From Leptolyngbya sp. SIO1E4 (GTDB lineage Bacteria; Cyanobacteriota; Cyanobacteriia; Phormidesmidales; Phormidesmidaceae): a stretch of 64,000 nt of DNA. Shown here in pieces: positions 8,176-31,053 of this stretch. Every line of letters starts with the position of its first letter. The stretch's first letter is position 1. A program made the translations under genes and the position numbers. The stretch lies in NCBI GenBank assembly GCA_010672825.2, contig JAAHFU020000003.1:992001-1056000 (forward strand). The letters run 5' to 3'. The notes under the pieces were generated by a model. The model did not search any database. It worked only from the letters and a program-made list of their open reading frames with translations, and was not told the DNA's origin.

Positions 8176-8271
8176 TATAGCCTGGTTCAGTTGAGTTCAG
8201 GACATCTGAGTCAAGACAGGGGCTAGGGGTTGGGGGCTTGGGTGTGCTTTATCCGCATGCAAACCGCTATA
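8176..8271. mobile_element. 96-bp MITE-like dispersed repeat, copy A
   Basis: Non-coding element bounded by TATAGC on the left and GCTATA on the right, consistent with short terminal inverted repeats and a TA target site. Related copies of matching length occur at 25639-25734 and, inverted and interrupted, at 30486-30688. Internally it has the strings GGTTCAGTTGAG, TCAAGACAGG and GGGTGTGCTT. It sits between the ABC transporter gene and the next gene, just after a run of AAGGCAG heptamers (8127-8142). It encodes no transposase, so movement would need one acting in trans. Confidence 0.75.
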
Positions 8272-11887: not shown

Positions 11888-14245
11888 ATGACGAACGGAG
11901 AAACGAAACCCCCTACCTCCAGTCAAGCAAGTAAAACAATTTCAATTGGCCTTGCCTGGTGCCTTGCCTGGGGAAGTGACGAAAAACCTCAAGTAGACAT
12001 CGCAGTTTTGCAGCAGATGCGAGAAGCGCTTCAAGTGGGTAAGCAAGTCCCGGAAAAAGTGCGATCGTATGTCGAGCAAGTTCAGAAACTCGACAAATTA
12101 GATTATCCCAAAACCTTGGAAGCGCTGAAAACGCTGCAGGCTGACAATCAGACTCTCTGGAATGCCAAGATTGGCCTTGCCTATGGTGGGGCGACCAAGA
12201 TTAAGCAGTATGTGTTTGAAGCCCCAAAGCTTCAAGACATTCGAGGTGCATCGGCGCTGCTGGATCGCATCAACCTCATTGATTTGCCTGCCTTTTTTCA
12301 TGGAGAAGAATCAGAACGCTTTGAACAGTGTCAGCAGTTTCCAGAGTATTGCCAACAGGTTAGAGATGACTGGTTAGAACTGGAACAAAACTTCCAAGGG
12401 CTTTCTCAAGCATTAATTCCCGAATTGATCATCTACTCGACAGGCGGCAATATCTTGGCATTTTGTCCGGTTGCCTATGTTCAGGTTCTGGCTGATGCCA
12501 TTGAGAAACGCTACACCCACGAGACCTTAATTGCCAACTCCTGTGCTGTTGGTCAACCCTTTCGTTTTCTAGAACTGAAATTTGGATTACTGAAAAATCC
12601 TATTGACCAAACACCCTGGCTGGAGTGGTATCGAGAAAATGCCAATCACTACCTGGTAGAAGCTAGCTTTGGCAAAGCCACCGAGAATTTGACAAATCAA
12701 TTCAAGGAACGCAAGAGCTTCAATGAACTGGTGCGTCAGCTAGCGGTGCGATTTAATCAACGACGCAGTGGTGACGATCGCTTTTCTAGTGAACGCTCTA
12801 GCCGCCGCTATCCTCCCATGTTTGAGGCCCACCCTTACGGGCGACGGGATACTAACGAGAAACGGTCAGCGGTTCGTCAAATTGACTCCCTCCCTAATCA
12901 ACCCTGGTTCTCGGATGTAGAAGCTCGCAAACGAATCTCTGGGCAAAAGGCAAAGCGAGACAATCAGAATACTTCCTGGTATGACGCTAATACAAGACAT
13001 TGGCTTGGTTGGGAGCCTGGAGAATTTCAAAGCTGGGTGACTCGGTATGAGCGCTTTCTAGGCAAACATCCAGCTCTATCGGCACAATACAATCCTCAAA
13101 ATCGGCAATTACAAGAGAATAAGAAAGAAGCGCGATCGCTGCGGGAAATCGGCAACGCGAGCCAGGGCTTTGTGGCTTATATCTATGCCGATGGCAACAG
13201 TATGGGTCAATACATCCAAACCATTAAAACGGCTGAAGCATATAAAGCATTCAGTGAAGCCGTTTCAATTGCCACCGAGCATGCTGTTTATTACGCGCTT
13301 GCAGAGCATCTTGCACCCCATCGGTTACATGGCCTTGAGGATCCAGACAATAAACATCGTAATGGTGATTGGATTCATCCCTTTGAGATTCTGACTATTG
13401 GTGGGGATGACGTGATGCTGATGGTGCCAGCGAACAAAGCATTGGCGATCGCAAAAACTCTGAGCGAGCAATTTGAAAACTTGTTGATGGCACAGAATTC
13501 TGAGTTCAGTGAACCACAGCAATTTTCTCGGGAGTCCTTAAAAGTCATTCACCGATATCATCCTGCAAATGCCGCCAAACCGATTGCCTGCCAACTTAGC
13601 ATGTCAGCTGGGGTTCTCATCACCGCCCAAGATACGCCGATCTACTACGCCGAAGACCTAACAAACCAGCTACTCAAGTCTGCTAAAAAACATGCCAAAA
13701 AACTGAAAAAAGAGTACGGCTACTTGGGTGGCACGATTGATTTCTTGGTGATGAAAGCAGTCACCATGTTGTCCTCGCAAGTGAGTGAGTTCAGAAAATC
13801 AGGGTTGGAGTTCGGGGAGAGACCCAAGTTAAAGCTCTACAGTGCTCCCTACACGCTACATGAGATAGGGGGATTGCTGGAAACAGCGGAAGCGCTCAAG
13901 CAGGCAGAATTTCCGCGATCGCAACTTTATCAGATTCGTGACTTACTACAACGCGGCAAGCGTACCGCTATGCTCAACTATCGTTACTTTTGGTCGCGGC
14001 TGAGTAACAAGGACGCCAAGGCAGAGCTCAAGGAAAAATTTGAAGATGCCTGGTGCCAGGCCAAAACAAACGACGGCAACTTGGTGCCTTGGAGCTTTGT
14101 AACCCCAACCGAAGAAGAACGTCGAAGCCCTGATTACGTCCCAACCTACGAGACGATTTGGCGGGAATTGATTGACCTGTATCCCTTCATTGATGAGGTA
14201 ACAGCTCGCTCCGAGTCAGAAACTTCAGCCTCTTTGGAGGTGTAG
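11888..14245 (+). CDS. cas10: Cas10, large subunit of type III CRISPR complex, HD domain absent
   Basis: 785 aa. The cyclase/palm motif GGDD is intact at residues 505-508 within EILTIGGDDVMLMV, preceded by YIYADGNSMGQYI, the other conserved palm strand. The Cas10 N-terminal palm-like region is visible as KIKQYVFEAPKLQDIRGASA (about 106-125). No HD nuclease pair is present in the first 100 residues, and the protein starts almost directly with the N-terminal palm. Expected role: target-RNA-stimulated synthesis of cyclic oligoadenylates, without single-stranded DNA cutting. Residues 280-400 are Arg-rich and variable. It is followed two bases later by the first RAMP gene. Confidence 0.9.
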   Translation: MTNGETKPPTSSQASKTISIGLAWCLAWGSDEKPQVDIAVLQQMREALQVGKQVPEKVRSYVEQVQKLDKLDYPKTLEALKTLQADNQTLWNAKIGLAYGGATKIKQYVFEAPKLQDIRGASALLDRINLIDLPAFFHGEESERFEQCQQFPEYCQQVRDDWLELEQNFQGLSQALIPELIIYSTGGNILAFCPVAYVQVLADAIEKRYTHETLIANSCAVGQPFRFLELKFGLLKNPIDQTPWLEWYRENANHYLVEASFGKATENLTNQFKERKSFNELVRQLAVRFNQRRSGDDRFSSERSSRRYPPMFEAHPYGRRDTNEKRSAVRQIDSLPNQPWFSDVEARKRISGQKAKRDNQNTSWYDANTRHWLGWEPGEFQSWVTRYERFLGKHPALSAQYNPQNRQLQENKKEARSLREIGNASQGFVAYIYADGNSMGQYIQTIKTAEAYKAFSEAVSIATEHAVYYALAEHLAPHRLHGLEDPDNKHRNGDWIHPFEILTIGGDDVMLMVPANKALAIAKTLSEQFENLLMAQNSEFSEPQQFSRESLKVIHRYHPANAAKPIACQLSMSAGVLITAQDTPIYYAEDLTNQLLKSAKKHAKKLKKEYGYLGGTIDFLVMKAVTMLSSQVSEFRKSGLEFGERPKLKLYSAPYTLHEIGGLLETAEALKQAEFPRSQLYQIRDLLQRGKRTAMLNYRYFWSRLSNKDAKAELKEKFEDAWCQAKTNDGNLVPWSFVTPTEEERRSPDYVPTYETIWRELIDLYPFIDEVTARSESETSASLEV

Positions 14246-14247
14246 TC

Positions 14248-14979
14248 ATGATTCAACTACAGAACCTAACACAGCAGACGGATAGTCTGCAGCTCACGGC
14301 CTTGATCGACAGCGCTCTGTGTGTCGGGGCTGGCGGCTCGTCTGGTTCTTTGGCCGATAAACCCATTATCCGTAATGGCCAGGGGCAGCTTTTGATTCCT
14401 GGTTCGCAGCTCAAGGGACGCCTACGCCATGAATGTGAGAAGTTAGCCCGGGGTTTACGCTGGCCTATCTGTGAATCCCCAGTTCCCCAAACCATGTGTC
14501 CCCAGATTGGGTTACCAGACGATTCGCTCTTTAGGCGAGATAGGTATCGTATTGAGAAATTCTTTATCGATGGCCGCCAACAGCATCACTGCTTGATTTG
14601 TCAGATCTTCGGTAACCCGTCTCTTGCTTCCCGCATCGTGGTCGATGACTTGATTTGTGAGGTAGAGCCTGCAAACCTTCCAGAGGTTTTACGTCCAGGG
14701 GTAACACTCAATCGTCGCCGTAGAACGGCTGAAGATCAAAAGCTCTACTTTTTAGAGACCTCTCCCGTTAATGTGCAGCTGCCCTTCACAGGCTATATCC
14801 ATTGGGAGCCAGACTGTCCTCCCTATGCCAAACCACTGGTGCTGGCAGCCTTGCATCATATTCATGCCTTAGGGGGTAGTAAATCGGCTGGGTTAGGCTG
14901 GTTGCGATGGCAGCTGCCTAACGAGACCACCATCGAAGACAGTGTTTGGAACTTACTGATGGAGGGTAGCGCCTCATGA
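14248..14979 (+). CDS. cas7: Cas7-like RAMP subunit (Csm3 family), Cys-rich
   Basis: 243 aa. RAMP hallmarks: LLIPGSQLKGRLRHE at about 48-62 and the C-terminal glycine-rich loop LGGSKSAGLGW. Asp37 in the ADKPIIRN motif is at the position of the Csm3 catalytic Asp that cuts target RNA, so this subunit is probably an active backbone nuclease. Cys63, Cys75, Cys84, Cys115 and Cys118 (CLIC) suggest a structural zinc site. GGAGGTG at 14236-14242 is the ribosome binding site, inside the end of cas10. The gene overlaps the next one by four bases (ATGA), showing translational coupling. Confidence 0.85.
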   Translation: MIQLQNLTQQTDSLQLTALIDSALCVGAGGSSGSLADKPIIRNGQGQLLIPGSQLKGRLRHECEKLARGLRWPICESPVPQTMCPQIGLPDDSLFRRDRYRIEKFFIDGRQQHHCLICQIFGNPSLASRIVVDDLICEVEPANLPEVLRPGVTLNRRRRTAEDQKLYFLETSPVNVQLPFTGYIHWEPDCPPYAKPLVLAALHHIHALGGSKSAGLGWLRWQLPNETTIEDSVWNLLMEGSAS

Positions 14980-16202
14980 CCACACTTCAACTGACAATTA
15001 CGGCGCTCTCTCCCTTGGCAATTGGTCGCCAAAAGCCAGGAGGCTCCATTAGCGAAGCCCAGCGCTACATTCCAGGCTCCGTGATTCGGGGGGCGATCGC
15101 GGGCAGAATGCTGCGCCAAGCCTCTACAGATGAAACGGCAAATCTGGAGCAACCCGATGGCGACTTTCAGCAATTATTTACCGCAGAGGATGCGGCGATT
15201 TTTAGCAATGCCTATCCTACAGCGGTAGAGCAATCAGCCCAGGTCTTACCAGCTACTGCTGTCAGCTCTAAAACAAATCCTGGATTTCGCTCGGAGAAAG
15301 AAACCAATGGTGGGGTATTCGATACCTTAATTGACGCCTTTTGTTCTGAAGGCTATGGCTATCCCTACGAACCCAGCAGTTTAGTGGGCGATCGAGTGGA
15401 GCCTTACCGGCAGTTCTATACCGTGGCGAATGAGCAGTATCAAAGCCATCGGGTTGATACCCGTCTGTTGACCCGTGTGGGTATCAATCGACGACGAGCA
15501 ACGGCGCAAGAGCAGGTGCTCTACAGCATTGAGGTAATCAATGAAACGCAGGGAAAGCAGAAGCAACCCACTGTCTTTAGCAGCACCATTTCTCTAGAGG
15601 ATGACAATCTGGCGAATCAGTTAGTTATCTATCTGGAGCAGCAGCCTTGGCGATTGGGCGGTTCCACTTCGCGGGGGTTAGGCAAGGTTGAGATCCAAGC
15701 GGTCGTAAAGGCGAAAGACACTTCAATCGAGGCTCGAATTGAAGGGTTTAATCAAGCTTTGAGAGACCGCTGGCAGATTTGGGGAGATGTTTTTGGCCCC
15801 CCTCAAAGTCCTTTGCCAGAAGACAGGAAATGGCAGTTCTTTACGCTTGACCTGCAGGCGGATGCCATTCTAATGGAGCAATGGCGGCGCACGACGGTAA
15901 TTTCCCCTGAAATGCTTTGTCAGATGACGGGGATAGCAGATCCCCAACTCCAGCTTCATGCAGTTTATAGCAGTTACGATTATCGCTCGGGATGGAATGC
16001 TGCTTGGGGATTGATGAAGGACGTGGAATTGTTGACTAATCAAGGAGCTGTCTATTTATTCAGTACACCCCAGCTGGAACAGTGGTTACCTCAGTTGCAG
16101 CAACTGGAAATCACAGGCATTGGCGAGCGTACCTTAGAAGGGTTTGGACAGGTGCAGGTGTGTAATGAGTTTCATCAAGTGTTTCGGGAGGCAGCTGTAT
16201 GA
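14976..16202 (+). CDS. csx10: Csx10 (Cas5-type RAMP of subtype III-D)
   Basis: 408 aa, larger than Cas7 RAMPs and with two RAMP-like halves. The N-terminal half opens with TITALSPLAIGRQKPGGSI, then YIPGSVIRGAIAGRML. A middle segment VLPATAVSSKTNPGF corresponds to the Csx10 'TA-x-S-x-K' region, although the Cys usually seen there is Ser here. A glycine-rich loop LGGSTSRGLGKVE lies near 228-240 and a second, GIGERTLEGFGQV, is at the C-terminus. Csx10 caps the crRNA 5' handle in III-D complexes, and its presence is the main reason for calling the subtype III-D. It overlaps both neighbouring genes by four bases. Confidence 0.8.
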   Translation: MTTLQLTITALSPLAIGRQKPGGSISEAQRYIPGSVIRGAIAGRMLRQASTDETANLEQPDGDFQQLFTAEDAAIFSNAYPTAVEQSAQVLPATAVSSKTNPGFRSEKETNGGVFDTLIDAFCSEGYGYPYEPSSLVGDRVEPYRQFYTVANEQYQSHRVDTRLLTRVGINRRRATAQEQVLYSIEVINETQGKQKQPTVFSSTISLEDDNLANQLVIYLEQQPWRLGGSTSRGLGKVEIQAVVKAKDTSIEARIEGFNQALRDRWQIWGDVFGPPQSPLPEDRKWQFFTLDLQADAILMEQWRRTTVISPEMLCQMTGIADPQLQLHAVYSSYDYRSGWNAAWGLMKDVELLTNQGAVYLFSTPQLEQWLPQLQQLEITGIGERTLEGFGQVQVCNEFHQVFREAAV

Positions 16203-16633
16203 CGTTTAGCTCTGAACAACAGCGCGACTTGAAAGTTCAGCGCGGCATTCGCCAAGCAGAAGATAAGTTGGTGCAATTGATTCAAGATGCCTTGGATAAC
16301 TGCGAATATCCTAAAGAGGGACGGAATAAGCTGGAAGAATCCCAGTTTCGTAATCTGGTCAGGGTGTCAGACACGACCGCTAGTCCTGAAGTTGTGAAGA
16401 ATTTTTTGCGGTATCAGGTAGGGCGAGAGCCCAAGTGGGGACGTGGCGATAAGTCCCTAGCTGAGCGCATCATTGTGGATATTGACAGTCAGTTGAAGAC
16501 AACTGCCCAGGCCATTGCTCAAGCGGCTGGTGGCCAAGATATTCCCGATATCCAGATGGAGCTGATTCGCCGCTATCTAGGGTATGGTTCCCGCTATTTG
16601 AAGTATCTCAATTTCAAAAACGAAAACAACTAG
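16199..16633 (+). CDS. cas11: small alpha-helical subunit, Csm2-like (Cas11) candidate
   Basis: 144 aa, predicted all-helical and charged. The segments LEESQFRNLVRV (about 43-54) and VVKNFLRYQVGRE (about 63-75) resemble the two conserved helices of Csm2 (S-x-x-R-N-L and a K/R-Y-x-x-GRE stretch). It sits between csx10 and the next Cas7 RAMP, where small subunits are commonly encoded, and starts in an ATGA overlap with csx10. Cas11 subunits line the inner filament of the complex and hold the crRNA-target duplex. The assignment rests on size, helicity, position and this weak motif likeness. Confidence 0.6.
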   Translation: MTFSSEQQRDLKVQRGIRQAEDKLVQLIQDALDNCEYPKEGRNKLEESQFRNLVRVSDTTASPEVVKNFLRYQVGREPKWGRGDKSLAERIIVDIDSQLKTTAQAIAQAAGGQDIPDIQMELIRRYLGYGSRYLKYLNFKNENN

Positions 16634-16647
16634 TCCCTCAAAATTTT

Positions 16648-17535
16648 ATGTTTGATGTTTTTAAGAGCCGCTTAGAAATTAGCGGCATTCTCACGACTGT
16701 CACCGCTTTACGGATTTCCCAAGGCCGCTCAACGGAACCCATCGGTTCAGATTTGCCAGTGGTCAAAGATTCTTTAGGGAAGCCCTTAATTCCAGGGTCG
16801 AGCTTCAAAGGAGCCTTGCGATCTCGCCTCGAGAGCTTCTTACGTGGGATCTTAGGCAGCGAACGCAAACTCGTTGCTAATCCCGCGATTGAAGAAGAAT
16901 GGTCTCTAACGGCCAGTGAAATCAATCTCATCAAAGAGCGATCCTCGAATGATGCTGCATTCACTGCAGCAATTGTCGCAGAAACTGACTTGGTTTCAAG
17001 GCTATTTGGCTCACCATGGATATCCAGCAAATTCCAAGTTCGGGATCTCACTGTACTGCCCGACACCTGGTTTGGACAGTATCAAGAACGGGACGGTGTT
17101 TCCATTGATCGTGATACGGAAACCGCTGCCGACGGCAAACTCTACGATTTTCAAGTGGTTCCAGCTGGAACCCCGTTTGAATTCAAGGCAGTGGTTGAGA
17201 ATGCTGAAGACTGGGAGCTAGGTCTGCTGATGATTGGCCTCCACCAGTTTGAAAGCGAACAGATTCCTCTTGGTGGCGGGCGATCTCGGGGCTTGGGCGT
17301 GGTCAAGCTCAACATTGGCGATGTGTGGTGGGTGGACTATCCCGAAGAGCAACCTGAGGAGTTATTGACTTACCTCCAACGTCTGGTAGGGGGTGACAAA
17401 GACCATTACAAACTTACTCCCGACTCCTTCAATGCCTATAAAGCAGACTGGACAACTGCCTTAGTCAGCTATTTAAGACAGCAAACATCTACGGGTAGCG
17501 AGGATACAAGCGTCGAGGAGGGTAGCCATGCATAA
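16648..17535 (+). CDS. cas7: Cas7-like RAMP subunit (Csm3 family)
   Basis: 295 aa. Typical Csm3 architecture: SGILTTVTALRISQG, then GSDLPVVKDSLGKPLIPG and SSFKGALRSRLE, an LFGSPWISSKFQVRDL strand, EERDGVSIDR-type thumb region (RDGVSIDRDTETAADGKLYD), and the C-terminal glycine loop LGGGRSRGLGVV. Asp35 occupies the catalytic position of Csm3 in the G-x-D-x-P-V pattern, so target-RNA cutting is likely retained. Starts 14 bases after the small subunit and overlaps the next RAMP gene by eight bases. Confidence 0.87.
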   Translation: MFDVFKSRLEISGILTTVTALRISQGRSTEPIGSDLPVVKDSLGKPLIPGSSFKGALRSRLESFLRGILGSERKLVANPAIEEEWSLTASEINLIKERSSNDAAFTAAIVAETDLVSRLFGSPWISSKFQVRDLTVLPDTWFGQYQERDGVSIDRDTETAADGKLYDFQVVPAGTPFEFKAVVENAEDWELGLLMIGLHQFESEQIPLGGGRSRGLGVVKLNIGDVWWVDYPEEQPEELLTYLQRLVGGDKDHYKLTPDSFNAYKADWTTALVSYLRQQTSTGSEDTSVEEGSHA

Positions 17536-18481
17536 GCGATTTGTGAATCACTGCACCATTGAGTTCACCCTTTCCCCTTGCGGCCCCATTTTGATCAAGT
17601 CAGGAAAAGAAGGGGCTGACCCCACCAAACCTCAGATGGAGTTTGTCGAAACTTACCACCAAGGTGGTCGCTCCATTTATCTGCCCGGCAGTTCTCTAAA
17701 AGGTGCCTTGCGCGCCCATGCCGAGCGAATTATCAGAACTGTAGGCAGAGATCGCCGCCCCACTGATCCTAGTCATCTCTGGGCCAGCAATCCACTCGAT
17801 TTGAATAGCTATCAATATTTGGACGATATTGAGGATACTCGTGATATCTATCGCCTATCCTCGTTTACCGATCAGATGTTTGGCAGCGTCTCTATTGCCA
17901 GTCGAGTGCGGATCGAGGATGCCTATCCGGTTGATCGAGCCCAGCTCAAGATTGAGGAGCGCAACGGAGTGGCTATTGATCGAGTCTTTGGTTCCGTAGC
18001 CGTCGGCCCTTTCGATTATCAGGTCTGTACCGCTGGAGCATTCCGAACCAAAATTCATCTGAAGAATTTTACACTGGCTCAATTGGGTCTTTTGGGTTTG
18101 GTATTGCGAGACTTGGATGATGGCTGGTTTGGTTTGGGCTTTGCAAAGTCTCGTGGCATGGGCCTGGTATCCGTCAGTCTCAAGTCTGCCGTAGTGCAAT
18201 ATCCCGGCTGCGTGTTAGAGGCCGACCAGATTAAAGCACTTGGTTTAGAAAACCCCCCCTGGTCCAAGACCAGTTTGCTGGGGGCTGGGGTGTTCTTAGA
18301 CCCAGCAGAAGCTAGGCACTATGGCTTTCCTGAGAATGATAAACAAGAAACACCTGTTGCTGCTCAGCCGATGGATTTAGGTTTTGGGGTTCAACTCACC
18401 TGGTCAGGACAAACTCAGGTTGAAGATTTGTTTACCCGTTCAGTTAAGTCTTGGAGTCGCTTGCTGGGGGTGGCTGCATGA
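17528..18481 (+). CDS. cas7: Cas7-like RAMP subunit
   Basis: 317 aa. RAMP features: IEFTLSPCGPILIKSG at the N-terminus, IYLPGSSLKGALRAHAE (about 50-66), MFGSVSIASRVRIEDA, the thumb-like ERNGVAIDRVFG, and glycine loop GLGFAKSRGMGLV. Asp31 in KEGADPTKPQ is a candidate catalytic Asp. It has a longer C-terminal extension (about residues 240-317) than the previous RAMP. Its ATG lies eight bases before the end of the preceding gene, and its own stop overlaps the next ATG, so the operon is tightly coupled. Confidence 0.83.
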   Translation: MHKRFVNHCTIEFTLSPCGPILIKSGKEGADPTKPQMEFVETYHQGGRSIYLPGSSLKGALRAHAERIIRTVGRDRRPTDPSHLWASNPLDLNSYQYLDDIEDTRDIYRLSSFTDQMFGSVSIASRVRIEDAYPVDRAQLKIEERNGVAIDRVFGSVAVGPFDYQVCTAGAFRTKIHLKNFTLAQLGLLGLVLRDLDDGWFGLGFAKSRGMGLVSVSLKSAVVQYPGCVLEADQIKALGLENPPWSKTSLLGAGVFLDPAEARHYGFPENDKQETPVAAQPMDLGFGVQLTWSGQTQVEDLFTRSVKSWSRLLGVAA

Positions 18482-18909
18482 GTTTTGTTGGCACCCAAAT
18501 CGTAGAAACCCCTGAGGCTCTTAAAGTTCTCTTGAATCAAGTTCAGGGAGAAAAACGCTGCTTTTTTCTACGCTGGCCTCATAAAGTCAGTGGTTTGTGC
18601 CGTAATCTGCCGGGCGATTTCCCGAGCCCGGAGGGGCAAGTATTTACCAGCGATCGCGAAATACGCTGGAAGAAGCACAGGCATGGCTACAGCGTTCTAG
18701 TGCTAAGTCAAACGGATGCCGTCGAAGGCTTTGACCCAATCAAACCGAATACGGAATGGGAAACCTGCGATCGCGAGGCTCATGTGTACCCTCCCACTGA
18801 GACCCGTTTTCCTAAGGGCATTGCCAGCGATGGTATCAACATTGGCCAACGATATTTTCGCGATAAAAAAACAGCAATGGTTCACTTTATCGCCTCAGTG
18901 GCGAAATAA
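18478..18909 (+). CDS. small III-D accessory protein, Csx19-like candidate
   Basis: 143 aa. ATG 18478 overlaps the previous stop codon (ATGA). The frame is open nine codons further upstream, but that part is shadowed by the preceding gene. The central segment VFTSDREIRWKKHRHGYSVL followed by VLSQ resembles the 'tag-x-E-x-R-W' strand pair of Csx19 (TIGR03984), a protein usually encoded among the RAMP genes of III-D loci. The rest (PTETRFPKGIASDGINIGQR) is polar and not diagnostic. Function unknown. The name is tentative, and another RAMP-associated family is possible. Confidence 0.5.
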   Translation: MSFVGTQIVETPEALKVLLNQVQGEKRCFFLRWPHKVSGLCRNLPGDFPSPEGQVFTSDREIRWKKHRHGYSVLVLSQTDAVEGFDPIKPNTEWETCDREAHVYPPTETRFPKGIASDGINIGQRYFRDKKTAMVHFIASVAK

Positions 18910-18914
18910 AGCTT

Positions 18915-20012
18915 ATGTCAAAGTCAAAACCGATTAAAAAATCGTCTCAATCCCAGAAGCCTAGTCCTCCTAAGAAGCGGGTTGGGGCAAAGCTTGGGGC
19001 TTCACACCAGCCGAACCCGATTCCAGATACGCAGGACAAGCCCTATGGCCTAGTACCCTTAACAACTCAGGGAATTGACCGCCAAATCCCCGTAGGGCAA
19101 GACAAATTCAAACATGATCGCTTCAGTGGCAAGCTTCACTTGGCATTAACAGTTCAGACGGCCTCGTTTGTGGCCTCGGGCGTTGTGGCGATGGGGCGGG
19201 ATGTGGATCTCAAAGCAGATCTGATCAAAACAGCCGTGCATCAGAAGAACCAGCTGATTATTCCTGGCAGTTCCTTAAAAGGCGTGGTGCGATCAACCTA
19301 TGAAGCTCTGACCCGCAGCTGCCTTTGCAAAACTAAAGCAAAGCGAGACGAAATACCTAAAGGTCATGGGGAATGCAAAATTCAGAAAGATAAGATTGAG
19401 GTCTGTCCAGCCTGCCGGGTGTTTGGAGCCATGGGCTGGCAGGGGTTAGTCGCTTTCCCAGATGCTGTAGGACAAAAGGTCAGCACCAGTGTAGGGTTCA
19501 TGCCGTCGCTCTACAGGCCCAGAACTGAGAATCCTATGTATCAGAACGATGGCAAAGTGTCAGGGCGCAAGTTTTACTATCACGCCGTCAAGGCCGTGAA
19601 TGCGGGAGAGCAGCGAGGTATTCCTGTGCAACAGGCCGGGCAAGCGTATGTTTTCAAAACGGCGCTGCAATTTAAGAACCTGACGGAGGCGGAGTTGGGG
19701 ACGCTGTTGGTCATTTTGGGACAGGATAGCGACTATCCGATGGCCCTCAAGGTGGGCGGAGGCAAGCCCATTGGCATGGGAAGTATGGTAGTGACGGTCG
19801 AAGCCTTGGAGAAGCCGGGTAATCTCAAAAGCCGCTACACCCATTATGTGCTGCCGGACTCCGATCACTTAACTGACGAGCCGCTAAAGCGCTTTATGCA
19901 AACTGCGATCGTCGCCGCCCATCAAACCCTAATTGAGGAATATCAGCTCAAGGAACTGGCCAGAATCCTGGCGTGGCCGACTCAACGTCCTGCACCGGAG
20001 GGAATGTACTAA
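18915..20012 (+). CDS. cas7: Cas7-like RAMP subunit with basic N-terminal tail and Cys cluster
   Basis: 365 aa. The first 40 residues are a disordered Lys/Pro/Ser-rich tail (KKSSQSQKPSPPKKR). The RAMP core follows: LHLALTVQTASFVASG, LIIPGSSLKGVVRSTYEAL (about 114-132), a Cys cluster C136, C138, C154, C164 and C167 likely to bind zinc, VFGAMGWQGLVAFPDA, and the glycine loop VGGGKPIGMGSMVV near 285-298. The equivalent of the Csm3 catalytic Asp is not obvious, since the loop reads GRDVDLKADLIK. Possibly the terminal or capping RAMP of the filament, binding target RNA with its basic tail. Begins five bases after the previous stop. Confidence 0.8.
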   Translation: MSKSKPIKKSSQSQKPSPPKKRVGAKLGASHQPNPIPDTQDKPYGLVPLTTQGIDRQIPVGQDKFKHDRFSGKLHLALTVQTASFVASGVVAMGRDVDLKADLIKTAVHQKNQLIIPGSSLKGVVRSTYEALTRSCLCKTKAKRDEIPKGHGECKIQKDKIEVCPACRVFGAMGWQGLVAFPDAVGQKVSTSVGFMPSLYRPRTENPMYQNDGKVSGRKFYYHAVKAVNAGEQRGIPVQQAGQAYVFKTALQFKNLTEAELGTLLVILGQDSDYPMALKVGGGKPIGMGSMVVTVEALEKPGNLKSRYTHYVLPDSDHLTDEPLKRFMQTAIVAAHQTLIEEYQLKELARILAWPTQRPAPEGMY

Positions 20013-20014
20013 CG

Positions 20015-20644
20015 ATGTCAACGGAAATAGCCCCTCTGGAACTGACAGAAGTGCAATGGCAAGTAGCGGAAGCGATCGCCCGTAAGCTGGTCATTGAAAG
20101 AACGGATGTGAACGAGCTGCGGAAAACCCTAAGCTATCTCCGAGAGTATGTAGACCGAGAGAATGCGGGCAAGGCGTTTTTTGATTACCTGAAAACGCTG
20201 GTACGTAGGGGAGATCAGATTGGCCACAGTAAGAAAACTGTTGAGTATTACAAAAGCCTGGATAGCATTTGTAGTGAGTATTTGAAGGATTATCAGGACA
20301 AAGCTCCTCAGATACTAATGATTCTGGGGTGGGCGACTCGACTGGTGAAGTATTACGACAAAGGAGTTCCGACTGGGGAGATTCAGCCCATTACAGTAAT
20401 GTCTGAGCGCGAAGCAGCAATCCAAGCCGTGACTCAAGCGAATACGTTTGAAGTGGGGCAAGAAATCGAGGCAACTGTTGCTGCCATCAAGAAAAGTAAA
20501 GTAACCTATGAAATCTTGGGAACGATTCGATTAACACAAAAGGAACCAAAGCTGGCGAGTAAATTAACAGAGGGCCAGACAGTTTCTGTTTATATTGCAG
20601 ATTTGAAGAATGACGGCTCAATTAAACGAATAAAAGGAATTTAG
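20015..20644 (+). CDS. uncharacterised CRISPR-operon protein, helical N-domain plus OB/S1-like C-domain
   Basis: 209 aa. I do not recognise the family. Residues 1-130 look all-helical with conserved-looking aromatic and charged pairs (KAFFDYLKTLVRRG, KKTVEYYKSLDSI, ILGWATRLVKYY). Residues 145-209 are beta-rich with an S1/OB-like opening FEVGQEIEATVAAIKKSKV and closing GQTVSVYIADLKNDG, suggesting nucleic-acid binding. ATG 20015 (GGAGGGA at 19998-20004, directly after the RAMP stop codon) is chosen over an upstream start that would lie inside the RAMP gene. The helical half could be a second small-subunit-like fold. Its position between the complex genes and the TIR-SAVED effector suggests a role in the same system. 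Confidence 0.65.
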   Translation: MSTEIAPLELTEVQWQVAEAIARKLVIERTDVNELRKTLSYLREYVDRENAGKAFFDYLKTLVRRGDQIGHSKKTVEYYKSLDSICSEYLKDYQDKAPQILMILGWATRLVKYYDKGVPTGEIQPITVMSEREAAIQAVTQANTFEVGQEIEATVAAIKKSKVTYEILGTIRLTQKEPKLASKLTEGQTVSVYIADLKNDGSIKRIKGI

Positions 20645-20653
20645 TAAATAAGC

Positions 20654-21922
20654 ATGAACACTGTGCAAACCAGACCACCTTTTGTCTCCACTTTCCTGTC
20701 CCATTCCTCAGACGACAGTGAGCTAGTTGAAAAAGTGGCGAAGCGGCTTGGGCGTCGCGGTGTCTTGGCTTGGCTCGATAAAAAAGAGTTACTTGAAATG
20801 GGACCTTTGGATGTCGCTCTCAAAAGAGCTGTTCAACAACAGGCGACTCTGACCATTTTTCTCTCTGAAGCCTCATCAAATTCTGAATGGTGCAAAGATG
20901 AGCTTAAGTGGGCGATTGAAGCACAAAAAGGAAGTGAGCACATACTACCTGTGTATCTAGGTGATCCACTTCAGCTAATTAGAAAACATGATTTGCTTCG
21001 GACTCGTTTTCTCGACGCTTTTGGCAAAGTAAATCAGTTGGGCTATTGGTGCCAGCAAAACCCGACTTCCCCGAATCCAGATGCTATTGCCGAAAAAATT
21101 GCGGCTACGGCTTACAAGCGGTTAATTCCGGAATCATGGTCTGAAGTTGTGATCGTCCTCGATCAGCGAGGCAGTGGACAACGGCGAGGGTTTCCTCCAA
21201 TGCCAGATAACATTGCTCGCTTGAATGCTCCGACCTTGATTTTCCGACCTAGCCTTGACCCGCGTCAGAAAGGAGAACTTCTCACTGATTCAGACTGGGA
21301 CGATATGGCTACAACTATGACCGGATCGTTGTCAAACGCTCTTGGTACACTGCGTCGTGATTTTTGCAAGGTAATCGTCCTCAGTAATGCTCAAACAGGT
21401 TTGGCCTGGGCAGTCGGCAAGCATTTTGATAGGACTGATAACGTAGAACTTTATGGTTATGACAGACTCGGGAATCTGGTTACTAATGAAGGACAAGAGA
21501 GATTAAAACTGCTACCTGGCGGAAATCCTGACCGTGCCCAATTGGTCAATAGTGAAACAAATCGCTTAAATGAAACTCAACCAGAGGTCGCATTGGGTAT
21601 TGGGAACATAGATTATGCGCATGATGCACATCAAGCAGTGCCGCATCTCCCTTTGCTTTGGATAGAAACTAGCAAGATTGAAAACTCAGAGCAAGCTATG
21701 CAATTAGCCAAAGATATTGTTGCAACTTGCAAACGCCTGTACCGCGAGCATAGTGTTCGTGAGCTAGCTTTGTTTTGGGCAACCGCTAACCACGTATCCC
21801 TGCTTGCCGCAGCTAATCTGACGGCACAGCATGCTTTGCCTAAGATTAAATACATGGAGAGAGACCACTATCAAGGAAAGTATGTCCACTTGCCCATGCC
21901 AGGAGATGCACCATTGTCTTAG
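20654..21922 (+). CDS. TIR-SAVED effector protein
   Basis: 422 aa. Residues 10-155 form a TIR domain: strand A motif FVSTFLSHSSDDSELVEKV, WLDKKELLEMG (BB-loop region), and TIFLSEASSNSEWCKDEL, where Glu83 is at the place of the NADase catalytic Glu. Residues 160-422 fit a SAVED domain, a cyclic-oligonucleotide sensor: VVIVLDQRGSG, paired strands LPLLWIETSK and a C-terminal LALFWATANHVSLLAAAN followed by IKYMERDHYQGKY. Known: TIR-SAVED proteins assemble on a cyclic oligoadenylate and degrade NAD+ (described for CBASS, and listed among type III effectors). It starts nine bases after the previous gene, at the end of the Cas10 operon, so it is the likely toxic output of this system. Confidence 0.8.
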   Translation: MNTVQTRPPFVSTFLSHSSDDSELVEKVAKRLGRRGVLAWLDKKELLEMGPLDVALKRAVQQQATLTIFLSEASSNSEWCKDELKWAIEAQKGSEHILPVYLGDPLQLIRKHDLLRTRFLDAFGKVNQLGYWCQQNPTSPNPDAIAEKIAATAYKRLIPESWSEVVIVLDQRGSGQRRGFPPMPDNIARLNAPTLIFRPSLDPRQKGELLTDSDWDDMATTMTGSLSNALGTLRRDFCKVIVLSNAQTGLAWAVGKHFDRTDNVELYGYDRLGNLVTNEGQERLKLLPGGNPDRAQLVNSETNRLNETQPEVALGIGNIDYAHDAHQAVPHLPLLWIETSKIENSEQAMQLAKDIVATCKRLYREHSVRELALFWATANHVSLLAAANLTAQHALPKIKYMERDHYQGKYVHLPMPGDAPLS

Positions 21923-24135: not shown

Positions 24136-24525
24136 ATTGAAGGATTCCCGGTGCAAAAGGCAGAAATCAGAAGGCGGAGAAAAGGCAGAAATCAGAAGGC
24201 AGAAGGCGGAGGAAAGGCAGAAGGCAGAAGACAAAAGGCAGAACGAACATTGGGATGGTCAGCTCAGCTTCTGAAACACTCAATCATACTGAAGCCTTAC
24301 CGATTTCCCTTTCATCCTTCATCCTTCTGATTTCTGATTTGGTTAAGGTTTCCGTCCCCGGTACAAAAGGCAGAAATCAGAAGGCGGAGGAAAGGCAGAA
24401 AGCAGAAGGCAGAAAGCAGAACGAATATTGGGTTAGTTAGTTCAGGTTCTGAAAGACTCAGCCATATCGAAGTCTTACCGATAACCCTTTCATCCTTCAT
24501 CCTTCTGATTTCTGATTTGATTAAG
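24136..24525. repeat. two tandem, diverged copies of the array-flanking (trailer) unit
   Basis: Gene-free stretch. Unit 1 (about 24143-24347) and unit 2 (about 24348-24525) share, in order: a CCCCGGTRC-like junction, CAAAAGGCAGAAATCAGAAG, runs of AAGGCAG heptamers, AACGAAYATTGGG, a TTCTGAAA block, and CATCCTTCATCCTTCTGATT just before the next repeat-like sequence. At 24348-24359 there is a 12-base stub of the CRISPR repeat (GTTTCCGTCCCC), and a more decayed one at about 24143-24150. So the block next to the terminal repeat was duplicated together with part of a repeat, and the repeat has since decayed. Confidence 0.7.
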
Positions 24526-25089
24526 GTTTCCGTCCCCTTGCGGGAAATTGGTTGGGAAACGTTTGAAGAGCACGCTGGGCTAGACACCTATTACCAGGTT
24601 TCCGTCCCCTTGCGGGGAATTGGTTGGGAAAGATCTAATCCCAATTGGGATTTATTCGATGACAATCAACTCTTGTTTCCGTCCCCTTGCGGGGAATTGG
24701 TTGGGAAAGAAAGTTACGATCCCGACAAAGACCCCAACAAGCCTGTTGGAAGTTTCCGTCCCCTTGTGGGGAATTGGTTGGGAAAGGTGGTCAGTGTGAA
24801 TTCACTTTTGCACTTGATTTGAAAAATGTTTCCGTCCCCTTGCGGGGAATTGGTTAGGAAAGCAGATTGTAACGTGCGGCATTACCCATCAAACAGTTGA
24901 ATGTTTCCGTCCCCTTGCGGGGAATTGGTTGGGAAAGTCTGCTTAGAAATTCATTATCTGCCAGGGGCTGAATCCGCGAGTTTCCGTCCCCTTGCGGGGA
25001 ATTGGTTGGAAAAGCCTCCAAATGGCCAATCGGAGTGTGCGGATTTACGAGTATGTTTCCGTCCCCTTGCGGGGAATTGGTTGGGAAAG
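24526..25089 (-). CRISPR. CRISPR array, 8 repeats of 35 bp and 7 spacers
   Basis: Repeats at 24526-24560, 24598-24632, 24675-24709, 24752-24786, 24828-24862, 24903-24937, 24980-25014 and 25055-25089. On the plus strand each begins GTTTCCGTCCCC, has TTGC between CCCC and GGGG, and ends GGTTGGGAAAG. Spacers are 37-42 bp. Read on the minus strand, the stem CCCC-GCAA-GGGG is followed by ACGGAAAC, a typical 8-base crRNA handle, so transcription is most likely leftward from a leader next to cas2. The 24526 repeat has two changes (one in the stem, one at the last base), as expected for the leader-distal end. Single changes occur at 24752, 24828 and 24980. Confidence 0.95.
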
Positions 25090-25338
25090 ACTACGGATCA
25101 GAGCCCTTACTAGATAAGCGTTTCAACCAGGCCAATCTCCATAGGTCGAGAATACCACAGAAATTGACCGTTGAAGCAGCCTAAAAAAGACAAGATAGAC
25201 GCCTGAAACCCCTGTGGGGCAAGGCACCTCCATAGGTCAACGAAGTTATGCGGTTTTCAAGGTTCGGGTGACCTATGGAGGCCGACTCAATCTGCCACCA
25301 AAATACCTTAAGCTGTCAAAAAGATCGGATTGCCTACA
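25090..25338 (-). promoter_or_regulatory. CRISPR leader region with repeated CCTATGGAG boxes
   Basis: 249 bp between cas2 and the leader-proximal repeat. A perfect 13-bp inverted repeat has arms at 25227-25239 (CCTCCATAGGTCA) and 25269-25281 (TGACCTATGGAGG), separated by 29 bp. A third copy of the box (CTCCATAGGTC) lies at 25137-25147. Between them, at 25211-25220, is a small stem of CCCC and GGGG resembling a decayed repeat stem. The boxes could be regulator sites or integration-factor sites. The leader role is inferred from orientation. Confidence 0.55.
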
Positions 25339-25614
25339 TTAAACGATATAAAAATCAGGGGGAGGCTGAGGCAGTGGACTGCCTAGCGTCAGCGTCTTAG
25401 GCAGAGCATCAGAAGAAATCCAGTAAAAGCGGACATTATCTTCCTCTAATTTGATGCGCCCCTGCACTTTTTGATGGAGAGTCTTCATTTCAGCCAAACT
25501 CAAAAAACACTCAAAGACACTCTTCTGTACCCGCCGACCATAACCCTCTAAAAAAGAAGCCAGCTTGGTTCGGCGTTTATCGTCAGGAATGTCGTAGACG
25601 ACAAGCACCAACAT
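25339..25614 (-). CDS. cas2: Cas2 endoribonuclease-fold adaptation protein
   Basis: 91 aa, the normal Cas2 length. It opens with MLVLVVYDIPDDKRRTKLAS, where Asp8 of the V-Y-D-I motif is the conserved metal-binding residue. Then come GYGRRVQKSVFECFLSLAEM and VRFYWISSDA. Cas2 dimers bridge two Cas1 dimers in the spacer integrase. The frame is open upstream to 25938, but that part is a mobile-element copy plus an RT fragment, so ATG 25612-25614 (GGAAG at 25622-25626) is the real start. No cas1 is present in the window. The coding region looks intact. Confidence 0.92.
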   Translation of the reverse strand: MLVLVVYDIPDDKRRTKLASFLEGYGRRVQKSVFECFLSLAEMKTLHQKVQGRIKLEEDNVRFYWISSDALPKTLTLGSPLPQPPPDFYIV

Positions 25615-25638
25615 TAGTTCAGCTTCCGATAAGCCACA

Positions 25639-25734
25639 TATGGTCTTGTTCAGTTGAGTCCAGTACATCTGGGTCAAGACAGGGTCTGGGGTTTGGGGTC
25701 TAGGGTGTGCTTGATTAGCCTGCGTACTGCTATA
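25639..25734. mobile_element. 96-bp MITE-like dispersed repeat, copy B, inserted in the cas adaptation module
   Basis: Same element as 8176-8271 and the outer part of 30486-30688: TCTTGTTCAGTTGAGTCCAG on the left, GGGTCTAGGGTGTGCTT toward the right, and GCTATA at the right end (the left end is changed to TATGGT). It lies 24 bases upstream of the cas2 start and exactly at the point where the reverse transcriptase frame loses homology, so it marks the boundary of a deletion or insertion that removed the RT-Cas1 coding region. Its own sequence happens to be read through in frame with cas2. Confidence 0.75.
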
Positions 25735-25938
25735 AGTGCCGTTTGCCAACAGCGCCCGCTTGTACCGCCGAATCTGGAGTTGAATCACGCGCCGATAGGA
25801 AACTAACGTCTGAATATCCGGATGGGATACTTGGAGGGTTTCGCTCTCTACCCCAGCACAGCCTTGGTTAGCAGCAACTTTCCGCCAAGCCGTGTGAAAG
25901 TTTTCAGCGGATAGAAACGTCACCAAAGGCTGATTCAT
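25735..25938 (-). pseudogene. N-terminal fragment of a reverse transcriptase, probably of an RT-Cas1 fusion
   Basis: 68 codons starting at ATG 25936-25938. Segments FLSAENFHTAWRKVAANQGC, AGVESETL and YKRALLANGTY match the first conserved region of group-II-intron-like reverse transcriptases (N-L-x-x-A-W-x-K-V, N-x-G-x-x-G-V-D, L-x-x-G-T-Y). The frame loses RT likeness at GTY, where the 96-bp element begins; the YxDD region and any Cas1 domain are absent. Position between cas6 and cas2 points to the cyanobacterial cas6 / RT-cas1 / cas2 arrangement. A group II intron remnant is the alternative. Confidence 0.75.
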
Positions 25939-25970
25939 CGGGGCTGAACCGGGTGCAGGTTATCCCTATT

Positions 25971-25996
25971 AAGACATCCCCTTTAAAAGGGGTCTT
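25971..25996. repeat. inverted repeat between cas6 and the RT remnant
   Basis: Arms around CCCCTTTAAAAGGGG with flanking AAGAC and GTCTT form a hairpin. It could be a weak transcription terminator after cas6 or a processing site. There is no clear U-run on the minus strand, so the role is unsettled. Confidence 0.35.
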
Positions 25997-26029
25997 CCAA
26001 ATCAGTCTGATTTCTGCCTTTTCTTGCCT

Positions 26030-27145
26030 TTAGCCGTCCCTCAGCGATCGCCGCGCCAACTTCCCATAGCTCTTCACCGTCTCGTAAGGCATTTCTAAAT
26101 CGGCTGCGATGTCCTGCAGCGAATCTCCCAATTCTCGCCGGGCCACGATTGTGGCCCAGGTCTCAGCGGTGTTCTGAGCCCGGTTGCCGCCTGTGCGTTT
26201 GCGCTGTTCTCGAAACACCGTGGTTAATTCCTCAATGCGCTCTGCGAGCAACCCCTGGGCCGAAGGCACTTCTATGGCTTGAGTTTGCTTCAGGTGCCAG
26301 CCTGTGATGGTTTCGCCTAAGCCAAAGGTCGTTTTATGGCCAGTGCCGCAGTAGGGTGCCAGCCGCCCCAGGGTAAAAAACAGACGATGAAACTCTGGAT
26401 TTTCCCGGGCTTTGCGATCCAGACTGTAGGCGATCGCCCCGGTAAAGCCGGTTACCGACCCACGCTTACCCGCTGCCACCTTGACCGACTGCAGCTGATG
26501 GCGCTGAATCACCACATGGTCATCAACCCAATCTAGAAAGGCATCTTGGGCGATCGGCTCGTCTGAAAAATCATTCCAACGACGCAAATAGCTGTGAAAG
26601 ACATTGCGGGGCCAGGGCAAGGGCAGGTGGTGCCCCTTGCGGCGAAAACTGGTGGGGCTCAGGAAGCTGAGGCTGAGGGTGTTTCCGGTCGAGGGGGCAG
26701 CGGCCAGATCAGCGTAGGTGGTCGCTGGGAGCACAACCCGCACCTGCTGAATCGTCAGCGGTACCGCTTTGAGCACTACGGCTTCGGGTAACTGTGGCAG
26801 CCAAGCGGCCAGCCCAGCGATCGTTCGTGGGGAAAAGCCCTGCACCTGCCAGCGATAAACCTTGCCCTTCTGAAGCTGCAGCGTGCGACTATGGGCAACA
26901 AACTGCCCGCTCAAGCCGGTGATGGCAAACGGCTTCTCTGATTCGCCATCGTGCAAATAGGCTGACAGCGCTGGATCAATCTGTTGCATCTGCTGTAGAA
27001 ACCAGGCATGAAGCCCAATAGTGTATTGCGGATACAGTTCGTAGTCGCGCGCGGGCAGCAGTGAAAATTCCAGCCCTACGAGTTCAGTCTCTTGGGGCCA
27101 ACTGACAGCAGTGAACGGGGCAGACTTTTTAGACCGGGTAACCAT
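26030..27145 (-). CDS. cas6: Cas6 crRNA-processing endoribonuclease with C-terminal helix-turn-helix
   Basis: 371 aa. The N-terminal ferredoxin-like half contains GLHAWFLQQM, with His46 at the usual place of the catalytic His. The C-terminal half has the Cas6 glycine-rich loop GTGHKTTFGLGETI at 267-280, preceded by RLAPYC. Residues 328-371 (TWATIVARRELGDSLQDIA, then DLEMPYETVKSYGKLARRSL) form an added helix-turn-helix resembling a sigma-region-4 or LuxR-like unit, joined by a charged linker (RIEELTTVFREQRKRTGG). It would cut the array transcript 8 bases before each spacer. First gene of the minus-strand module; ATG 27145. Confidence 0.9.
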   Translation of the reverse strand: MVTRSKKSAPFTAVSWPQETELVGLEFSLLPARDYELYPQYTIGLHAWFLQQMQQIDPALSAYLHDGESEKPFAITGLSGQFVAHSRTLQLQKGKVYRWQVQGFSPRTIAGLAAWLPQLPEAVVLKAVPLTIQQVRVVLPATTYADLAAAPSTGNTLSLSFLSPTSFRRKGHHLPLPWPRNVFHSYLRRWNDFSDEPIAQDAFLDWVDDHVVIQRHQLQSVKVAAGKRGSVTGFTGAIAYSLDRKARENPEFHRLFFTLGRLAPYCGTGHKTTFGLGETITGWHLKQTQAIEVPSAQGLLAERIEELTTVFREQRKRTGGNRAQNTAETWATIVARRELGDSLQDIAADLEMPYETVKSYGKLARRSLRDG

Positions 27146-30485: not shown

Positions 30486-30688
30486 TATAGCGGTTTGCAT
30501 GCGGATAATACCAGTTCTCGCTGCTAAAGCTACATGATCAGACCCCTCCCAGCCTCCCCTTGGCAAGGGGAGGTGCCGCAGGCGGTGGGGTAGCGATGTT
30601 GGAGAATTGGTATAAAGCACACCCTAGACCCCAAACCCTAGACCCTGTCTTGACCCAGATGTACTGGACTCAACTGAACAAGGCTATA
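30486..30688. mobile_element. MITE-like dispersed repeat, copy C (inverted, interrupted)
   Basis: Reverse-complement copy of the element at 8176-8271: TATAGCGGTTTGCATGCGGA at the left end and CTCAACTGAACAAGGCTATA at the right. The halves are separated by a second, different element (30508-30612) inserted at a TA dinucleotide. Removing the insert and one TA restores a continuous 96-bp copy. Confidence 0.78.
30508..30612. mobile_element. second MITE-like element nested in copy C
   Basis: About 105 bp bounded by near-perfect inverted ends, ATACCAGTTCTC on the left and GAGAATTGGTA on the right, and flanked by TA on both sides, as expected for insertion by a Tc1/mariner-IS630 type transposase. 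Internally it carries CCTCCCCTTGGCAAGGGGAG, a perfect hairpin, followed by GTGCCGCAGGCGGTGGGG, a sequence I recall as very widely dispersed in cyanobacterial genomes. No coding capacity. Confidence 0.75.
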
Positions 30689-31053
30689 TATTGCACCTGA
30701 AGTGCCGGTTAGGACAGTCAGATTTTCTGGAATCCTTATACAGAAAGGTTTTGGTTTCTGCCTTCTCCTAAGAAACACAATCTAATCGATGCTCAAAACC
30801 TGAGATTGTCGCCAGATAGACGACAATTGTGTTTCTTCCATCTCTAACGGGCAGCGTCAGCGCTCGTTAATAGCTGCCTTCTGCCTTCTGATTTCTGCCT
30901 TTTGCTATCGGTGACTGCTGAGAAAGAACATCCTCTACTCGCTGGGGCAGTTCAGCCAGACTCCAAGACTCACAACCGATGAATAACAGCAAAACCTGCC
31001 TGTACCGGCATTTTGCCCGCGAGCAATCCCCTTAAGCCCTAATGGACGAGGGT
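30689..31053. repeat. gene-free stretch with a cruciform-type repeat and heptamer runs
   Basis: 365 bp without a gene. It holds 12-bp inverted arms AAGAAACACAAT (30770-30781) and ATTGTGTTTCTT (30826-30837), with an inner pair ATTGTCG/CGACAAT (30805-30811, 30821-30827). At 30872-30906 is a run of the dispersed CTGCCTT heptamer family. Nothing else was recognised. Confidence 0.55.

What the first reader, a model, noticed from the sequence alone, without database searches (positions are those of the whole stretch)
25339..26029. Adaptation module broken: RT-Cas1 cut to a 68-codon stub at a 96-bp MITE-like element, cas2 intact
Seen: RT motifs end at L-x-x-G-T-Y exactly where the dispersed element (25639-25734) begins. 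On the other side only 24 bases separate the element from cas2. Those 24 bases read, in another frame, VAYRKLN followed by TAA overlapping the cas2 ATG (TAATG), as expected for the last codons of a cas1 gene. Inference: an element-associated deletion removed the RT-cas1 body, leaving cas6, cas2 and the array. The array would be frozen unless another cas1 in the genome acts in trans.
Basis: partly seen in the sequence, partly recalled or inferred. Interest (0 to 1): 0.75.

Follow-up and report, generated by a model that had tools for sequence, protein, structure and literature searches.

The report
Broken spacer-capture gene beside CRISPR array
A cyanobacterial CRISPR immune locus has lost almost all of its memory-capturing gene (RT-Cas1) to a large internal deletion, and a small mobile element landed separately near the gene's end, so its memory bank is probably frozen; this is a clean natural example of decay, not a new kind of system.

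Summary
The place and cause of the break were wrong. The "68-codon RT stub" is a chimera: codons 1-35 are the RT start; from codon 36/37 on it is the Cas1 C-terminus (86% identical over 28 aa to Leptolyngbya SIOISBB). The deletion junction is at window ~25833/25834, about 100 bp from the element; ~650 codons (~1.95 kb) are missing, in frame. "LANGTY" is Cas1 tail, not an RT motif. The 96-bp element is a separate plain insertion (net 94 bp) seven codons before the cas1 stop; it shifts the frame so that stub, element and cas2 form one 199-aa ORF. The genome's only other Cas1 is a type I Cas4-Cas1 with its own, different array. III-D effector genes, cas6, cas2 and CRISPR leader look intact; 4 of 8 repeats carry substitutions. 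Most likely the locus can still interfere but no longer acquires. Left open: an apparently separate lineage (genome G003) has the same junction within a codon or so.

The parts
25834..25938 (-). RT-Cas1 remnant 1: codons 1-35 of the RT N-terminus (MNQPLVTFLSAENFHTAWRKVAANQGCAGVESETL)
   Evidence: tblastn to RT-Cas1 of L095, 69% over 36 aa, 8e-14; aligned to L114/L115
25831..25834 (-). Deletion junction (codon 36, CAA, could belong to either side); L115 residues ~36-685 of 725 missing
25732..25833 (-). RT-Cas1 remnant 2: Cas1 C-terminal codons up to ...LLANGTY
   Evidence: tblastn 85.7% over 28 aa to the RT-Cas1 C-terminus of L095, 1e-12
25638..25731 (.). Net 94-bp insertion of the 96-bp MITE-like element (with target duplication 25639-25734), ends TATAGC...GCTATA in the consensus
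   Evidence: 44 genomic matches; copies aligned with flanks; length
25614..25637 (-). Last seven cas1 codons VAYRKLN and stop TAA, overlapping the cas2 ATG, in the original cas1 frame
25339..25614 (-). cas2, 91 aa, intact; also in frame behind the stub and element (199-aa ORF 25339-25938)
25090..25338 (-). CRISPR leader between cas2 and array; two GACCTATGGAG motifs 91 bp apart, shared with relatives
24526..25089 (-). CRISPR array, 8 repeats of 35 nt, 7 spacers; 4 of 8 repeats perfect
26030..27145 (-). cas6
   Evidence: PF10040 1.9e-21; TIGR01877 above cut-off
11888..21922 (+). Type III-D effector operon: Cas10, Csm3-like, Csx10, Cas11 (Csm2), three more Cas7-like, Csx19, Csx21, TIR-SAVED
   Evidence: PADLOC

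Best explanation
A decayed RT-Cas1/Cas2 adaptation module beside a type III-D CRISPR effector operon in a filamentous cyanobacterium. Two separate lesions hit RT-cas1, in an order not known: (1) an in-frame deletion of about 1.95 kb joined codon ~35 of the RT part to the last ~40 codons of Cas1, removing the RT and Cas1 cores; (2) a 96-bp MITE-like element inserted, as a plain insertion, seven codons before the cas1 stop. The net 94 bp shift the frame by one, so the stub runs through the element into cas2 (199-aa ORF), while cas2 keeps its own ATG. Shown: the two remnants, the insertion, the missing body, the lack of another RT-Cas1 in the assembly, readable cas2, leader, cas6 and effector genes. 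Inferred: interference with the seven stored spacers still works, new spacers are no longer added, and the array erodes by point mutation.
For: Remnants map 1.9 kb apart in L095; L115 keeps the intact 725-aa gene followed by cas2. The window groups with full-length genes L114 (99/96) and L115 (96/86). The element is multi-copy, and its flanks join to a normal Cas1 tail. The only other Cas1 is a type I Cas4-Cas1 with a different repeat; the III-D repeat occurs only in the window. The RT aspartate of GVD, D in 26 of 26 other rows, is E here: a sign of relaxed constraint. 4 of 8 repeats are substituted. The leader is conserved.
Against: Freezing is not directly shown: several loci with a broken Cas1 have perfect repeats (L120 22 of 22, L123 21 of 21, L099 24 of 24), so repeat decay does not track Cas1 loss in general, and the leader-proximal repeat of the window is perfect. 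In-trans acquisition by the type I integrase was not tested. The two remnants still show low dN (window-L114 N part dN 0.18, dS 0.53), so the deletion may be young or the stub may be constrained.
Confidence: 0.88

Rival explanations
1. One reading: the element itself caused the deletion, and the stub is pure RT up to the element.
For: Element and loss lie in the same gene; the string LANGTY resembles the RT motif GTYRP.
Against: Residues 36-63 are Cas1 C-terminus (86%, 1e-12); the junction is about 100 bp from the element; the element's flanks are contiguous in relatives.
Confidence: 0.03
2. The in-frame RT-start/Cas1-tail mini-gene, or its fusion to Cas2, is kept for a function such as translational coupling to cas2 or binding of Cas2.
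For: In frame in the window; nearly the same junction in G003 in an apparently separate lineage, in frame without its insert; L123 also has an in-frame internal deletion (318-aa ORF).
Against: In both the window and G003 a mobile element interrupts it; the RT GVD motif is altered in the window; the open fusion needs no selection (consensus element open in 1 of 6 frames, window copy in 2 of 6); other broken loci are out of frame (L109, L120).
Confidence: 0.05
3. The deletion is an assembly error.
For: The element is short and multi-copy; reads were not available.
Against: The junction is in sequence found once in the genome, and the missing body is not found elsewhere in 12 contigs rated 99.99% complete.
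Confidence: 0.03
4. The array still grows, with Cas1 supplied in trans by the type I Cas4-Cas1.
For: The leader, cas2 and the first repeat are intact.
Against: Different repeat and its own Cas2 in the type I locus; already the second repeat from the leader is substituted. Not tested directly.
Confidence: 0.06

Closest known systems
RT-Cas1/Cas2 adaptation modules of type III CRISPR-Cas (PMC5513706 and PMC5541045, passages read)
   Same: Gene order RT-cas1, cas2, leader, array; homologous RT N-terminus, Cas1 tail and Cas2; module and effectors of different origin, as those papers' swapping of modules would allow
   Different: RT and Cas1 cores are deleted; an element interrupts the cas1 tail; cas2 lies in frame behind the stub
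Type III-D and other CRISPR loci without an adaptation module, e.g. type VII with substituted repeats (PMC12669027, PMC5541045, passages read)
   Same: No working Cas1; array with substituted repeats
   Different: Here the remains of the module (two cas1 pieces, cas2, leader) are still readable
Truncated RT-Cas1 of genome G003 (L096)
   Same: RT codons 1-36 and Cas1 from L115 residue 686 on, cas2 of 91 aa, III-D effector genes adjacent
   Different: About 300-bp IS200/605-like insert at the junction; another branch of the tree; 16 of 19 repeats perfect

Membership tests
RT-Cas1 (functional protein) | RT N-terminus and Cas1 C-terminus homologous to RT-Cas1 fusions | tested here: met
RT-Cas1 (functional protein) | RT and Cas1 cores present | tested here: not met
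   L115 residues ~36-685 of 725 missing; Pfam and NCBIfam find Cas2 only in the 199-aa ORF and nothing in the 68 codons
Cas2 | Full-length Cas2 domain | tested here: met
Type III-D effector module | Cas10, Csx10, Cas11, Cas7 set, Csx19 | tested here: met
   PADLOC models
MITE | Short, multi-copy, inverted ends, target duplication, no coding capacity of its own | tested here: met
   96 bp, 44 matches, ends TATAGC/GCTATA, TA-type duplication read from the alignment
MITE | Relation to a full-length transposon of the genome | not tested
   no parent element was sought
Frozen CRISPR array | No integrase that serves the array | tested here: inconclusive
   No RT-Cas1 left; type I Cas4-Cas1 present, its action on this array unknown
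Frozen CRISPR array | No spacer gain between related isolates | not testable with these tools
   No other genome of the genus among the 63 of the family held

The most novel reading that the evidence does not exclude
RT-Cas1 has been cut to a short in-frame 'RT start plus Cas1 tail' peptide at nearly the same codons in two separate module lineages (window and G003), because the peptide or its translational link to cas2 is kept when acquisition is lost; in the window it has gone on to become an N-terminal extension of Cas2.
Probability: 0.05. Interest if true: 0.7.

Novelty: new member of a known kind. Interest (0 to 1): 0.35.

Why it matters
It is a natural RT-Cas1 knockout that leaves leader, repeats, cas2, cas6 and effector genes readable, so it shows how a type III-D locus loses its adaptation arm and offers a comparison for what RT-Cas1 alone contributes. 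It also corrects a trap: the Cas1 tail LLANGTY mimics the RT motif GTY. The near-identical junction in a second genome could be a deletion hotspot, which is testable with more genomes.

Tried and rejected
Microhomology as cause of the deletion: in 12 relatives with both sites readable (some with RT and Cas1 as separate frames) the longest exact run at the junction is 2-3 bp, and 22-71% of other in-frame pairs reach that. Not supported; the window's own ancestral sequence is unknown.

Common descent of the window and G003 junctions: in a tree of RT N-terminus + Cas1 tail + Cas2 (26 rows) the window joins L114 (99/96) and L115 (96/86), both with a full-length gene (L114 with one frameshift). The AU test rejects window+G003 (p 0.006; 0.0046 with two element-derived residues masked), but not without L114 (p 0.11), nor on 47 rows without the RT part (p 0.072). 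Separate origin is likely, not proven.

Selection on cas2 after cas1 loss: 11 of 12 broken loci keep a 91-aa cas2, but the loci were found through Cas2, and cas1 is a far larger target; no conclusion.

Repeat decay as proof of freezing: of 36 loci given to, 32 had an array; the window's 4 of 8 perfect repeats is the lowest share except L204 (mixed repeat types), yet broken loci L099, L120 and L123 have perfect repeats only. Some arrays there may belong to other systems, and L108 was labelled there as having Cas1 although its Cas1 is interrupted. Kept as weak support.

Protospacers: the array region gave no match in 50,697 phage records; 10 of 72,556 plasmid records matched at 60-80% identity, which I read as arrays with similar repeats.

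Literature: listings showed no title on such a deletion; passages only were read of PMC5513706, PMC5541045 and PMC12669027. That is no proof that it is not in print.

Full report
WHAT IS THERE. On the minus strand, window 25938-25339 is one 199-aa open frame. Its last 91 residues are Cas2. Residues 1-36 match the RT-Cas1 N-terminus of Leptolyngbya SIOISBB (L095/L114; 69%, 8e-14); residues 36-63 match the C-terminus of the same gene, just before its cas2 (86%, 1e-12). In that genome the two matches lie 1.9 kb apart. Against the intact 725-aa gene of Kaiparowitsia (L115) residues ~36-685 are missing, in frame. The Cas1 model covers residues 394-719 of L115, so only the last ~40 residues of Cas1 remain, and of the RT only the first 35.

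THE ELEMENT. It has 44 matches at E<=1 in the own genome, with only 40 of 554 first-look candidates scored. Copies aligned with flanks share TATAGC...GCTATA ends and a TA-type target duplication, as I read the alignment. In the window it sits between ...LLANGTY and VAYRKLN*, which together make a normal RT-Cas1 tail (L115 ...LMGDAPYEAFRKVN, L116 ...LLEGVPYEAFRKVN, L114 ...LTEKTSYKPYRKMK). The net insertion is 94 bp (25638-25731). That shifts the frame by one and puts the stub in the cas2 frame. The consensus element is free of stops in 1 of 6 frames, the window copy in 2 of 6, so the open fusion needs no special cause. Nothing is missing at the element; the deletion lies about 100 bp away. The order of the two events is not known.

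IS THERE A REPLACEMENT? The own genome (8.22 Mb, 12 contigs, rated 99.99% complete) has one Cas1 match, a 555-aa Cas4-Cas1 that scores best as type I-MYXAN, with its own Cas2 and an array of another repeat, 51 copies in the stretch L198. The two RT genes found lie on other contigs and not beside Cas1. The III-D repeat, at up to 3 mismatches, occurs only in the window, 8 times. Service in trans by the type I integrase is unlikely but was not tested.

WHAT STILL LOOKS INTACT. cas6; a III-D effector operon with Cas10, Csx10, Cas11, Csx19, Csx21 and a TIR-SAVED protein; cas2; and a ~250-bp leader that aligns with those of L115, L116 and L107. The array's polarity is inferred from L115, where the 11 repeats next to cas2 are perfect and those at the far end are not. 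In the window 4 of 8 repeats are perfect; the leader-proximal one is perfect, the second is not. A 2025 classification paper reads substituted repeats of type VII arrays in the same way, as a sign that new spacers are seldom added (PMC12669027, passage). Against this as a general rule, broken loci L099, L120 and L123 have perfect repeats only.

MODULE AND EFFECTORS. The adaptation remnants join L114 and L115. The effector protein 18915-20012 is closest to G007 and G050 (66% each), and the Cas2 module of G007 that I read (L109) lies in another branch; that of G050 was not in the tree. This fits the published view that RT-Cas1 modules move among type III systems (PMC5513706, passages).

HOW COMMON IS SUCH DECAY? 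One search took 53 sources and printed 52 cas2 rows (L146 and L147 fell under its threshold; L109 gave two). My tally of that table: in 33 rows the Cas1 body is whole (10 of them as one fused RT-Cas1 frame: L094, L097, L102, L113, L115, L117, L118, L126, L133, L136); in 12 it is not (window, L096, L099, L101, L108 interrupted by ~1.1 kb, second row of L109, L112, L120, L123, L130, L137, L204); 6 are cut by a contig end (L104, first row of L109, L111, L119, L125, L144); L121 is unclear. In 11 of the 12 the cas2 frame is 91 aa; L130 has an early stop. The loci were found through Cas2, which biases this. L114's gene is of full length with one frameshift, possibly a sequencing error.

AN OPEN PUZZLE. 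In G003 (L096) RT-Cas1 is cut to nearly the same ends (L115 residues 1-36 and 686-725)...GVDKETLT, then ~300 bp whose right end (...TTTTGGTCA) recurs at 5 other places of that genome, then ...ISHPDVQ.... By its ends I take the insert for an IS200/605-type remnant (from recall, not from a database). Without it the frame would be open, with about one residue more than in the window. A further genome (G010, L240) has an isolated RT start that ends at GVDGET. Yet window and G003 do not group in the trees. The AU test rejects them as one clade with p 0.006 and 0.0046, but not once L114 is left out (p 0.11) or without the RT part (p 0.072). Microhomology in present relatives does not explain it. A deletion hotspot, chance, or a kept mini-gene remain; I put the last at 5%.

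VERDICT. An ordinary kind of event, decay of a CRISPR adaptation module, caught in an unusually readable state.

Noticed in passing
window 20654-21922 (+): TIR-SAVED effector (PADLOC SAVED5--SAVED_TIR 4e-59) directly behind Csx21 of the III-D operon.
   Followed up: partly
window 25090-25338 (-): Leader with two GACCTATGGAG-type motifs 91 bp apart; the CCTATGG core is spaced 91 bp in 5 of 5 loci compared (window, L114, L115, L116, L107). Possibly a site for a leader-binding factor.
   Followed up: partly
L137 3560-4027: In this genome the last ~50 codons of Cas1 are joined almost directly to CRISPR repeats: an array lies against the cas1 tail.
   Followed up: no
L239 about 1480-1600 and L240 about 1490-1590 (genomes G043, G010): Isolated RT-Cas1 N-terminal fragments; the one in L240 ends at GVDGET, close to the window's junction.
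   Followed up: partly
L033 29-2992 (G000 C6): RT gene between two genes that look like formylglycine-generating-enzyme-type proteins: perhaps a diversity-generating retroelement (by recall).
   Followed up: no
window 30612-30689 and 8176-8271: Further copies of the MITE-like element in the window (95% over 78 bp, 81% over 96 bp).
   Followed up: partly
window 24193-24537: 178-bp tandem duplication at the far end of the array that includes the first 12 bases of a repeat.
   Followed up: no
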